Shown piece after piece: positions 49,900-57,099 of a stretch of 64,000 bases of DNA. The stretch covers positions 868,001 through 932,000 of the forward strand of contig CANLLF010000001.1 in assembly GCA_947491935.1 (NCBI GenBank). The letters are read 5' to 3'. A model generated the notes under the pieces. That model had not been told where the DNA came from, searched no databases, and saw nothing but the letters and a program-made list of their open reading frames with translations. A program made the position numbers and the translations under genes. Source of the DNA: an uncultured Roseicyclus sp. (GTDB lineage Bacteria > Pseudomonadota > Alphaproteobacteria > Rhodobacterales > Rhodobacteraceae). Numbering within the stretch: the first letter of the stretch is position 1; each line of letters starts with the position of its first letter.

Positions 49900-49910
49900 T
49901 TCGCATGCAA

Positions 49911-50082
49911 GCACAGGGAGACACTCGGGCATGCCGCTGGCATACCCTTGGGCCGAAGGAGCAACCGCCCCGGTAATCTCTCAGGCAAAAGGACCTGTGC
50001 CGCGCAAAACTTACTCTGGAGAGTGAGGGGGAACCCTCCGCCGAAGGGATAACGATCTCAGGCCAAAGGACAGAGGGGGCAT
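49911..50082 (+). ncRNA. Tandem glycine riboswitch
   Basis: Two consecutive aptamers lie ahead of gcvT. Aptamer 1 (about 49911-50000) shows the conserved GGGAGA, GGCCGAAGGAGCAA, TCTCAGGCAAAAGGAC elements; aptamer 2 (about 50010-50082) shows GGAGAG, CGCCGAAGGGATAA and CTCAGGCCAAAGGAC. Each is closed by a long GAGAG-type stem. The tandem arrangement and position upstream of gcvTHP fit a glycine-activated switch. The open frames across this stretch are therefore not genes. Confidence 0.93.
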
Positions 50083-51271: not shown

Positions 51272-51634
51272 ATGAAATACACAGAAGACCACGAATGGCT
51301 GAGACTTGACGGTGATCTGATCGTCGTCGGCATCACCGATCATGCCGCCACGCAGCTTGGCGATGTCGTGTTCGTGGAACTGCCGGAGATCGAGACGCAG
51401 GTCGCCAAGGGCGACGAGATCGTGGTGATCGAATCCGTCAAGGCGGCCTCCGATATCCTCGCACCGCTCGACGGCGAAATCGTCGAGGTGAACGACGCGC
51501 TGGATGCCAACCCGGCCCTCGTGAACGAGGATCCAATGGGGGATGCGTGGTTCTTCAAGTTGAAGGTCGATGATGTCCGCGCGCTCGACGATTACATGAC
51601 CGAGGACGAATACAAGGACCATATCGGGGATTGA
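51272..51634 (+). CDS. gcvH: Glycine cleavage system H protein
   Basis: The 120-residue lipoyl carrier has [12 protein letters not shown] at the start, [19 protein letters not shown], and [12 protein letters not shown] with Lys57 in the lipoylation position. It shuttles the aminomethyl group between P, T and L proteins. It lies in the riboswitch-controlled transcript. Confidence 0.97.
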
Positions 51635-54638: not shown

Positions 54639-55063
54639 ATGCGGTTCGTAAACCCCTTGCCCTTCGTCGCCGAAATGGACCGTGCCAGGCGGTTCTATTG
54701 CAATGTGATCGGATTGAAGGTCGTGGAGGATCACGGTGATTTCGTCCGGTTCGACGGCGGATTTGCCTGCATGACGGCGCGGCGCTCCACCGCAAGGTGT
54801 TTTCGCGCCGGCCGGAGAACACGGCCTTTGGGCGCGACAATCTCGTACTCTACTTCGAAAGCGATGATCTCGACGCCGCATTCGCTCTGGTCGCGTCCAA
54901 AGCGCCGATCATCCATCCGATCAAGATACAGGATTGGGGTGGGCGCGTGTTTCGCATCTACGATCCCGACGGCCATATCGTAGAAATCGGCGAAACCGAC
55001 GCCCCCAAAGAAAGGGGCCGCCCGCCGGGCAGCCCCAACACTCGATCCGGGACAGTGGGTTAA
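54639..55063 (+). pseudogene. VOC family protein gene with a frameshift
   Basis: The first part reads MRFVNPLPFVAEMDRARRFY, CNVIGLKVVEDHGDFVRF then FDGGFAC in one frame (ATG 54639); the continuing homology is in another frame, from LHDGAALHRKVFSRRPEN through LVLYFESDDLDAAFALV and FRIYDPDGHIVEIGE to the stop at 55063. Adding one C near 54766 restores a single VOC frame. Either the gene is broken or a base was missed in sequencing. The intact version would be a small VOC protein of about 140 residues. Confidence 0.75.
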
Positions 55064-55602
55064 CGCGACCGGCCGAAGCGCTGATACAACCCGTCCAGCG
55101 AATAGGATTCGGCCACAGGGCCATGCTCTTCGGGGAAGAAATTCGGGTCGACCGGCAAGCAATCCCGTCCACAGACCTGCGTCATGAACCCGGTCGTGCC
55201 ATCCACGAACCAGAGGCGGCCCCCGGGTGTTCCGACCCAGCCGTTGACGCCGTAGCGCATGTCACCTTCCACGTCCTGGATCGATGGCACCTCGCCATCA
55301 TATCCCAGACCCCACGCCGCATGGGTGTGCCACGACGACACCGCCCGCGCGCCCGGTTCCAGCGGCAGGGACGCGCAGCTGGCTTCTCCACCCCAAGACA
55401 CTTTCGTCGAGTAGTAGTTACCCTCCGCATCTTGCAAGATGAACCCGCACACCTCGCGGTTGAACCGCACGGAGAGCTGATTCATCGATTCCATCAGGCC
55501 CATCACGAACTCCGTCTCGCGCGCATCCTGCGCCTGCACGGGGGCAGACGCGACGGCGGCAACGGCGGCCAGAGCGGCCAGGGTGGAAGAAATCAGACGC
55601 AT
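55060..55602 (-). CDS. Secreted DUF4329/JAMM-like protein
   Basis: The 180-residue protein has a signal peptide (ending APVQAQ) and a single domain with a JAMM-type metal motif: Glu50 in REVCGFI, His92 and His94 in SWHTHAAW, and Ser107/Asp110 in PSIQDVEGD. The spacing from the second His to Ser is about 12, longer than the classic seven. DUF4329-type proteins are thought to be metallo-isopeptidases or deamidase-like. GGAG sits upstream of the ATG. It overlaps the end of the frameshifted VOC gene by four bases. Confidence 0.75.
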   Translation of the reverse strand: MRLISSTLAALAAVAAVASAPVQAQDARETEFVMGLMESMNQLSVRFNREVCGFILQDAEGNYYSTKVSWGGEASCASLPLEPGARAVSSWHTHAAWGLGYDGEVPSIQDVEGDMRYGVNGWVGTPGGRLWFVDGTTGFMTQVCGRDCLPVDPNFFPEEHGPVAESYSLDGLYQRFGRSR

Positions 55603-55742: not shown

Positions 55743-55928
55743 ATGGAACGCCTGCAGGACATGATGAAGGCCCGCGTAAACGCTGTGGCAAAGGGCACGT
55801 CGATCGAACGGCTGACCGACGATGAGGACGTGCGCGAATGGCTGGTTTTCGGGCGGTTCGCCATGCTGTTCTGCCTCTGGGCCGCGATGATCCTTCCGGT
55901 TCTCATGATCATATCTGTCCGCTTCTGA
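55743..55928 (+). CDS. Small membrane protein of unknown function
   Basis: The ATG at 55743 has GGAGAG at good spacing and opens a 61-residue protein: a charged N-terminal half (MKARVNAVAKGTSIERLTDD) and a C-terminal membrane segment (FGRFAMLFCLWAAMILPVL) ending in SVRF. No family recognised. An earlier ATG at 55716 is possible. Confidence 0.55.
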   Translation: MERLQDMMKARVNAVAKGTSIERLTDDEDVREWLVFGRFAMLFCLWAAMILPVLMIISVRF

Positions 55929-56028: not shown

Positions 56029-56112
56029 TCAGATTGAGGCCCAATCCGTGAAACGGAACGGTTTGGGGCGCGGTTTGCGCTGTTTCTTGGGTGGGGTCTG
56101 TCGCGAGGTCAT
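56029..56112 (-). CDS. Micro-ORF A, C-terminal PFRFTDWASI
   Basis: A 27-codon frame on the minus strand (ATG at 56112, TGA at 56029). The N-terminal half is Lys/Arg/Pro-rich and the C-terminus is PFRFTDWASI. A strong AAGGAG lies eight bases before the ATG. A second frame at 56215-56310 ends with almost the same residues, and the two 3' stretches differ largely at third codon positions, which points to selection on protein sequence. Too short for standard gene callers. No family recognised. Confidence 0.6.
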   Translation of the reverse strand: MTSRQTPPKKQRKPRPKPFRFTDWASI

Positions 56113-56214
56113 GTCGTCGGCTCCTTATCTACGGTCAGAATACGCGTAGAAAGCTAAGGAGTCTTTGGGTGTTCCACCGCCTTGACACGCATGCAAGGCG
56201 GGCTGGAACCGGCT

Positions 56215-56310
56215 TTAGATCGCGGCCCAATCGGTGAAACGAAACGGTACGGGCGCGGGTTTTCCGGGGATCGGGCTGGCGGGGCGGCGGGGCTTGGCGG
56301 GACGGGTCAT
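56215..56310 (-). CDS. Micro-ORF B, C-terminal PFRFTDWAAI
   Basis: A 31-codon frame on the minus strand (ATG at 56310, TAA at 56215), basic and proline-rich at its N-terminus, ending PFRFTDWAAI. The ribosome-binding site is weaker (GGAA) than that of micro-ORF A. It looks like an early duplicate of A, lying 102 bases upstream of it. Function unknown; the shared C-terminal tail is the candidate functional part. Confidence 0.55.
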   Translation of the reverse strand: MTRPAKPRRPASPIPGKPAPVPFRFTDWAAI

Positions 56311-56543
56311 CAGGGTTCCAATAGGGTTTGTGAAAATGTGACTTCAGCTTGGGGCAACCCGCCCCTGCCACACAATATCGGCGGGCTGATATCCGATAGC
56401 CGTTTCACATTCCTCCCCTATTTTCAGGCGCTTGGCGGAAACTGGCCGATCCCCCTGCTCCATAGGCGCCAAATGGCCCAGACGTGCTATGGTCGCCCAT
56501 GGCCCGATCCGACGGGCCCAGAAATGACCAAAGGGAGACCCAC

Positions 56544-56747
56544 ATGAGCGTTGCTCGCATCACCGAAATCATCGCCGCATCCGACAAGAGCTTTGAAGAC
56601 GCCGTCCAGAAGGGAATCAATCGCGCCTGCAAGACCCTCAACAAGGTACAGGGTGCCTGGGTGCAGGATCAGAAAGTGACCGTGAAGGACGACAAGATCG
56701 ACGAATACCGCGTCACCCTGAAGGTGACTTTCGTCCTCGACGACTGA
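56544..56747 (+). CDS. Dodecin family protein
   Basis: The 67-residue protein shows the dodecin pattern: ARITEIIAASDKSFEDAVQKGI, RACKTLNKVQGAWVQDQK and YRVTLKVTFVLDD. Dodecins form hollow dodecamers that bind flavins or CoA, buffering free flavin. The Trp in GAWVQ matches the flavin-stacking position. AAAGGGAG lies upstream of the ATG. Confidence 0.9.
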   Translation: MSVARITEIIAASDKSFEDAVQKGINRACKTLNKVQGAWVQDQKVTVKDDKIDEYRVTLKVTFVLDD

Positions 56748-56892: not shown

Positions 56893-57099
56893 TCAGACAA
56901 GCTGCAGGTTCACGGCGCTTTCGCGGCCGTCACGGCCGGCTTCGAGGTCATAGGTGACCTTCTGGTTGTCGGCGAGGCCAGTCAGACCGGAGCGCTCAAC
57001 AGCAGAGATGTGCACGAACACATCCTTGCCGCCCGTCTCGGGTGCGATGAAGCCGAAGCCTTTGGTAGAGTTGAACCATTTCACGGTGCCATTGGCCAT
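56893..57099 (-). CDS. Cold-shock protein
   Basis: The 68-residue protein has the CSD motifs GTVKWFNSTKGFGFI and KDVFVHISAVE, with an aromatic nucleic-acid-binding face. It acts as an RNA chaperone. AGGAGAC precedes the ATG, and the transcript probably carries a long leader through the palindrome-bearing region upstream. Confidence 0.92.
   Translation of the reverse strand: MANGTVKWFNSTKGFGFIAPETGGKDVFVHISAVERSGLTGLADNQKVTYDLEAGRDGRESAVNLQLV

What the first reader, a model, noticed from the sequence alone, without database searches (positions are those of the whole stretch)
56029..56310. Two tandem micro-ORFs sharing the C-terminal tail PFRFTDWA(S/A)I
Minus-strand frames of 27 and 31 codons, 102 bases apart, end in almost identical residues. 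The differences in the shared 3' parts are mostly at third codon positions (TTC/TTT, ACG/ACC), as expected of selected coding sequence. The first frame has a strong AAGGAG site. Both have basic, proline-rich N-termini and a constant aromatic tail, which could be a docking peptide for a larger partner. Both are too short for standard gene callers, so the family may be unannotated.
Basis: partly seen in the sequence, partly recalled or inferred. Interest (0 to 1): 0.75.

Follow-up and report, generated by a model that had tools for sequence, protein, structure and literature searches.

The report
Microproteins sharing one C-terminal docking tail
Two tiny unannotated bacterial genes in this stretch look real and belong to a family of short, probably floppy proteins that end in the same seven-residue tail and often sit beside genes for nucleic-acid-handling proteins, which suggests a shared docking code whose partner is not yet known.

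Summary
Two minus-strand micro-ORFs (31 and 27 codons) end in PFRFTDWA(A/S)I. Both are intact in 13 of 13 genomes of the genus, with strong purifying selection on the tail (uncorrected pN/pS 0.14 and 0.08). The tail plus stop was found in 63 of 394 Rhodobacteraceae genomes (reversed control 0); a looser form in 121 of 394 (5 control matches). Outside the family, 3 of 285 genomes matched, none microprotein-like. I collected 116 distinct carriers (uneven sample): 25-65 residues as extracted, no hydrophobic segment, P/Q/K/R-rich bodies, sharing only the C-terminus F-x-D-[W>Y]-A-[S/A]-I-COOH. Two neighbourhoods recur. Class I (57 of 116) precedes a TfoX_C-domain gene, in 20 of 57 with CUCCUCC-loop hairpins nearby. 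Class II (42 of 116, including the window's pair) has a CspA-type cold-shock gene nearby. Pfam and NCBIfam do not match the window's pair. Most likely the tail docks on a shared partner and the basic body contacts nucleic acid. The partner is unknown, genome-level co-occurrence with TfoX_C is not significant, and the one structure model shows no confident docking. Selection and the family are shown; the mechanism is inferred.

The parts
56215..56310 (-). Micro-ORF A, 31 aa, tail PFRFTDWAAI
   Evidence: intact in 13 of 13 genus genomes, pN/pS tail 0.14, body 0.42, uncorrected
56029..56112 (-). Micro-ORF B, 27 aa, tail PFRFTDWASI
   Evidence: intact in 13 of 13 genus genomes, pN/pS tail 0.08, body 0.35, uncorrected
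56215..56247 (-). Tail codons plus stop of ORF A
56029..56061 (-). Tail codons plus stop of ORF B
56121..56126 (-). AAGGAG ribosome-binding site of ORF B
56369..56398 (-). Conserved upstream element TATCGGATATCAGCCCGCCGATATTGTGTG, starting 88 nt before ORF A; promoter/operator role inferred
   Evidence: 0-3 mismatches to the consensus in the 12 tandem loci of the set (the thirteenth, L008, seen); weaker traces (8-10 mismatches; shuffled best 12) in L087, L072, L062; single copy in the own genome at up to 3 mismatches
56433..56447 (-). Second conserved upstream block GGCCAGTTTCCGCCA; role unknown
56161..56187 (-). Conserved inter-ORF block TGTCAAG...CCAAAGAC between A and B; role unknown
56893..57099 (-). 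CspA-type cold-shock gene upstream on the same strand, the class II neighbour
   Evidence: PF00313 match at this place
56544..56747 (+). Dodecin gene between cspA and ORF A, opposite strand; no homologue detected in the 3-kb loci L012, L013, L016, L018, L019
   Evidence: PF07311 match; cluster list; ATG start chosen by reading
55743..55928 (+). Convergent small gene after ORF B (reads like a membrane protein), so ORF B has no co-directional gene directly downstream
   Evidence: homologues in 7 other loci besides the window's own; start and membrane character by reading only

Best explanation
The two ORFs encode soluble, probably disordered microproteins. Their C-terminus, F-[TS]-D-W-A-[SA]-I-COOH, is a short linear docking motif for a cytosolic partner common to Rhodobacteraceae, while the basic, proline-rich body is a linker that probably contacts nucleic acid. 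Different genes attach the same tail to different bodies: class I lies in front of a TfoX_C gene, often beside CUCCUCC-loop hairpins; class II lies near cspA. The likely setting is RNA-level or stress regulation. Shown: coding, selection, the C-terminal motif, its spread and the neighbourhoods. Inferred: disorder (from composition), docking, nucleic-acid contact and the regulatory role.
For: Tail-focused purifying selection. Motif plus stop at 80 places in 63 of 394 family genomes, control 0 (two of 82 pattern matches end in TGG and are left out). In 198 of those genomes 40 matches end in a stop, while a pattern for the same core followed by a codon not starting with T (and, as I wrote it, a G seven bases after the Ile codon begins to be read on, so it samples only part of them) gave 6, none with A or S before the Ile. 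Looser form in 121 of 394 genomes, 5 control matches. Bodies of 116 carriers differ in length and sequence; none has a hydrophobic segment, 98 of 116 are net positive. TfoX_C downstream of 57 of 116 and of 18 of 29 pattern-picked loci; 16 of the 30 best TfoX_C loci have such an ORF upstream. A CSD gene near 42 of the other 59, same strand for 41. CUCCUCC on the ORF's strand in 20 of 57 class I regions, 0 of 57 on the other strand; 27 of 28 sites in predicted hairpin loops.
Against: No partner identified. AlphaFold of one natural read-through of tail plus TfoX_C gave a confident TfoX_C core, but the two ten-residue blocks that hold the tail average 66 and 51. TfoX_C is present in 50 of 63 tail-positive and 233 of 331 other genomes, Fisher p = 0.17, so there is no significant co-occurrence. 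14 of 30 TfoX_C loci lack a tail ORF, as do five other CSD places in the own genome. 17 of 116 carriers have neither neighbour in the flank held. CUCCUCC is found in only 1 of 42 class II regions, so that link does not extend to the window's class. No expression data.
Confidence: 0.55

Rival explanations
1. The tail is a nascent-chain arrest peptide: ribosomes pause at its stop codon and so regulate the neighbouring gene, like TnaC-type leaders (recalled).
For: Conservation abuts the stop codon. Class I ORFs precede TfoX_C by 3-202 nt; the spacer folds better than mononucleotide shuffles (z below -2) in 18 of 55, and only 14 of 57 TfoX_C starts, as picked by script, have an SD.
Against: In the window a convergent gene follows ORF B and cspA lies upstream of the pair; elsewhere CSD lies on either side; all three stops are used, TGA 75, TAA 24, TAG 17; bodies are also under selection.
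Confidence: 0.15
2. The tail binds TfoX_C (class I) and CspA (class II) directly, with small differences of the tail setting specificity.
For: Gene neighbourhoods. Class I tails mostly have S at -2 (48 of 57) and often V at -9 (28 of 57); those of the tandem loci mostly A at -2 (20 of 25) and F at -9 (23 of 25).
Against: TfoX_C and CSD are unrelated Pfam families; no confident docking; 13 of 63 tail-positive genomes have no PF04994 match at E 1e-5.
Confidence: 0.17
3. The tail is a C-terminal degradation signal that keeps the microproteins short-lived.
For: Free hydrophobic C-terminus; from general knowledge such ends can be protease signals.
Against: An unusually specific motif with D and W nearly fixed; I looked for no protease link, so this is untested.
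Confidence: 0.08
4. Not a protein gene; the conservation belongs to an RNA.
For: Conserved non-coding blocks around the ORFs.
Against: Synonymous sites are free (pS 0.53 and 0.64 in the tails) while replacements are rare, and the frames are open in 13 of 13 genomes; no strong consensus fold in the three flanks tested.
Confidence: 0.02

Closest known systems
CcaF1-CcsR (CIN1) locus of Rhodobacter sphaeroides
   Same: A small protein gene co-transcribed with CcsR RNAs (passages of PMC10253847). Class I loci have a small, mostly basic protein ORF beside CUCCUCC-loop hairpins. That CcsR RNAs carry this loop motif is recalled.
   Different: CcaF1 is a 71-aa DUF1127 protein; the microproteins are mostly shorter and the window's pair has no Pfam match. 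The window's class II locus lacks the loop motif beside the ORFs.
Pos19 (RSs0019) small coding RNA
   Same: Short translated ORF of unknown function in the same bacterial family (passages of PMC5036791).
   Different: Reported there only in R. sphaeroides strains; I did not see its peptide sequence.
SSB C-terminal tip and chemoreceptor C-terminal pentapeptide (both recalled)
   Same: Flexible linker ending in a conserved C-terminal peptide.
   Different: The motif F-x-D-W-A-x-I differs, and here the tail is on separate microproteins.

Membership tests
Pfam / NCBIfam described protein families | match to a curated model | tested here: not met
   0 families for both window ORFs at E up to 1; PHROGs and PADLOC not searched
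DUF1127 small proteins (CIN1) | DUF1127 domain | tested here: not met
   no Pfam match for either window ORF; the other carriers were not scanned
DUF1127 small proteins (CIN1) | co-located CcsR-type RNAs | tested here: inconclusive
   CUCCUCC in 20 of 57 class I regions and 1 of 42 class II regions; no such Rfam match in 20 loci
Termination-arrest leader peptides | conserved C-terminus at the stop codon | tested here: met
Termination-arrest leader peptides | regulated gene directly downstream | tested here: not met
   for the window pair: a convergent gene follows ORF B; class I carriers do have TfoX_C downstream
Termination-arrest leader peptides | ribosome stalling | not testable with these tools
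   needs toeprinting or ribosome profiling
Type I toxins (small hydrophobic) | membrane-spanning segment | tested here: not met
   0 of 116 exceed a 15-residue mean hydropathy of 1.6
Chemoreceptor pentapeptide | aromatic last residue | tested here: not met
   last residue I in 113 and L in 3 of 116; the rule itself is recalled

The most novel reading that the evidence does not exclude
F-x-D-W-A-x-I-COOH is a portable docking code. Rhodobacteraceae attach it to many unrelated disordered microproteins so that cold-shock, TfoX_C and CUCCUCC-RNA modules act through one shared hub, a previously unseen post-transcriptional control system.
Probability: 0.25. Interest if true: 0.85.

Novelty: new variant of a known kind. 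Interest (0 to 1): 0.63.

Why it matters
Microproteins of 25-40 residues often escape annotation. Here a family is defined by a seven-residue C-terminal tail rather than a domain, which makes it easy to find and easy to test: one immobilised peptide should fish out the partner. It also gives TfoX_C proteins of these bacteria a recurrent companion (none of the 7 papers listed for TfoX plus Rhodobacter, listing only, appeared to be about them), and it brings cold-shock genes and CUCCUCC-loop hairpins into view around one motif.

Tried and rejected
Leads that gave nothing: Rfam on the window at gathering cut-off (only a glycine riboswitch 6 kb away) and on 20 related loci (one tRNA); plasmid and phage collections with one microprotein (no match); viral contigs (3 stretches, none confirmed). 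Papers were searched; from the listings none appeared to describe this family, but the library lacks most subscription papers and two relevant ones. A profile search gave matches at E 0.01 in 25 of 248 family genomes, several doubtful; the DNA patterns replaced it. AlphaFold read-through: no confident docking. PDB fold search: only 3mab and 3bqt, Listeria proteins of unknown function, with good scores. Five other CSD places of the own genome: no tail ORF. Arrest peptide, degron and toxin readings: see rivals.

Rows dropped: L102 (its match ends in TGG, not a stop) from the 30 loci cut out; with it one genome (G212), and one further TGG match in G041, from the counts; one chance ORF ending LDELAAL from the 117; L149-L151 (outside the family); L096 gave no ORF by my rule.

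Caveats: the 116 carriers are not an even sample. They mix tail-picked and TfoX_C-picked loci, with several close relatives, and the extraction rule required A at -3, D/E/N at -5 and W/Y/F/L at -4, so those columns are partly fixed by the rule. Two tandem entries (ORF A of L009 and L012) were taken with too early a start, which makes 65 and 50 aa out of 31. The looser pattern also admits Cys at the W position. The 'length multiple of three' line follows from how the ORFs were chosen and is not used as evidence. The match to the GCCACATTTCCGCCA block (22 of 57 class I upstreams at up to 3 mismatches) had no shuffled control of its own.

Full report
On the minus strand ORF A (56310-56215, 31 aa) is followed after 102 nt by ORF B (56112-56029, 27 aa). 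Both end in PFRFTDWA(A/S)I. Neither matches Pfam or NCBIfam at E up to 1.

They are selected coding sequence. A protein search gave matches in 13 of 13 genomes of the genus, the window's own included. Reading the loci showed both ORFs in all 13, with a third copy in one. Uncorrected Nei-Gojobori counts over 13 sequences each gave tail pN/pS 0.14 for A and 0.08 for B, and bodies 0.42 and 0.35, with pS 0.53-0.67. The frames are open in all 13, with body length differences only in whole codons. Two of the 13 genomes are very close to each other, and no correction for multiple changes was made.

The tail is a family-wide motif. A DNA pattern for [FY]-x-D-W-A-x-I-stop (x before D limited to codons of the form [AT][CG]N) matched 82 places in 64 of 394 Rhodobacteraceae genomes, the reversed control none. 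Two of the 82 end in TGG rather than a stop, leaving 80 places in 63 genomes. A looser pattern, allowing Y or C at W and any residue before D but fewer residues before the Ile, matched 122 genomes (121 without the TGG case), with five control matches. In a class-level draw of 289 genomes, 285 of them outside the family, three outside genomes matched, and none of the three looks like a microprotein. Named carriers include Roseicyclus, Jannaschia, Litoreibacter, Roseovarius, Cognatishimia and Primorskyibacter. The uncultured Roseicyclus record CANLXA010000001 has an ORF B identical to the window's.

The motif is tied to the C-terminus. In 198 genomes that were also, 40 matches end in a stop. A pattern for the same core not followed by a stop gave 6 matches, with 2 in its reversed control. 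That pattern required the next codon not to begin with T and a G a few bases on, so it samples only part of the internal cases, perhaps a third by my estimate. None of the 6 has A or S before the Ile. Since stops are a tiny share of codons, the tie to the stop is strong.

From the loci in hand I extracted 116 distinct proteins. D at -5 and A at -3 are in 116 of 116, partly by my extraction rule. W at -4 is in 105 of 116, the rest Y, L or F. The last residue is I in 113 and L in 3. Bodies are rich in P, Q, K, R, A and T, no protein has a hydrophobic segment, and 98 of 116 are net positive. Disorder is inferred from this composition; no disorder predictor was run.

Neighbourhoods fall into two classes. 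In class I (57 of 116) a TfoX_C-domain gene follows on the same strand after 3-202 nt (starts picked by script). Nine of ten neighbours first scanned had PF04994, and the tenth carried a cold-shock domain. Of the 29 genuine loci among the 30 cut out, 18 are class I. Starting instead from the 30 best TfoX_C matches, 16 have such an ORF upstream and 14 do not. TfoX_C itself is common, in 283 of 394 genomes. It is present in 50 of 63 tail-positive and 233 of 331 other genomes, Fisher p = 0.17, so co-occurrence by genome is not significant.

In class II (42 of 116, the window's pair included) a CspA-type gene lies in the flank held, on the same strand in 41 of 42. Outside the genus this holds for 12 of 27 loci that are not class I. 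The own genome has CSD matches at six places in 4.65 Mb, so a chance neighbour within the 1.5-3 kb flanks would be expected at about 1% or less (my estimate from this one genome). No class I carrier had a CSD gene in its flank. In L062 and L072 three tail ORFs follow cspA in series; in the window a dodecin gene lies between, on the opposite strand. The five other CSD places of the own genome showed no tail ORF.

RNA features. In 20 of 57 class I regions (300 nt before and 160 nt after the ORF) a CUCCUCC motif lies on the same strand, against 0 of 57 on the opposite strand and 2.3 expected by a first-order model, and 27 of 28 sites fold into a hairpin loop. Several of the 57 are close relatives, so these are not 20 independent cases. 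In some loci the hairpins lie between the tail ORF and TfoX_C and are followed by a GC stem and a T-run. This resembles the CcsR RNAs that accompany the small protein CcaF1 (passages of PMC10253847; the loop motif of CcsR is recalled). Class II regions have the motif in 1 of 42. Upstream of ORF A two blocks are conserved in the genus. One shares TTTCCGCCA with a block found, at up to three mismatches to GCCACATTTCCGCCA, upstream of 22 of 57 class I ORFs (GCCACATT is in 11 of 86 upstream regions against 0.5 expected). This hints at common control and was not tested further.

Mechanism. Different bodies that share only the last seven residues, tied to the stop codon, is what a C-terminal docking motif would look like. 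I could not identify the partner. AlphaFold on a natural read-through of the Jannaschia rubra tail ORF and its TfoX_C gene, 15 sequences, gave a TfoX_C core above 90, while the two ten-residue blocks that hold the tail average 66 and 51 and form a short helix. This is inconclusive, since the fusion removes the free carboxylate. The TfoX_C core resembles 3mab/3bqt, Listeria proteins of unknown function. An arrest peptide is the main rival; for the window it is disfavoured because a convergent gene follows ORF B and cspA lies upstream.

Verdict: a real microprotein family, unmatched in Pfam and NCBIfam and seen only in Rhodobacteraceae among the genomes sampled, with a conserved C-terminal tail and two recurrent nucleic-acid-related contexts. 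The docking role is likely but unproven, and the RNA or stress role is a reasoned guess.

Noticed in passing
class I loci, e.g. L002 about 218 nt upstream of the ORF; L074, L076, L077, L091, L179: CUCCUCC-loop hairpins beside the microprotein ORF, on its strand only; possibly anti-Shine-Dalgarno RNAs, with no such Rfam match.
   Followed up: partly
window 56433-56447 and class I upstream regions (L048, L160, L002): Shared TTTCCGCCA upstream block; in L048 and L160 GCCACATTTC is repeated at an 11-nt period, like a regulator site.
   Followed up: partly
L072, four ORFs between 1971 and 3063 (+) and one on the - strand: Five tail microprotein ORFs in one 6-kb stretch around a cspA gene.
   Followed up: no
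L103, L110: A third microprotein type (MFCTAH... ending in FTDWASI) converging with a Crp-family regulator gene.
   Followed up: no
L082, L139: Tail microproteins about 110 nt upstream of an L,D-transpeptidase (YkuD) gene.
   Followed up: no
window 49905-50006 (+): Glycine riboswitch (Rfam RF00504), about 1.6 kb before a large ORF at 51631 that reads like glycine dehydrogenase.
   Followed up: no
window 55060-55602 (-): DUF4329 protein gene with homologues beside tail ORFs in the genus loci and in L062, L072, L087.
   Followed up: no
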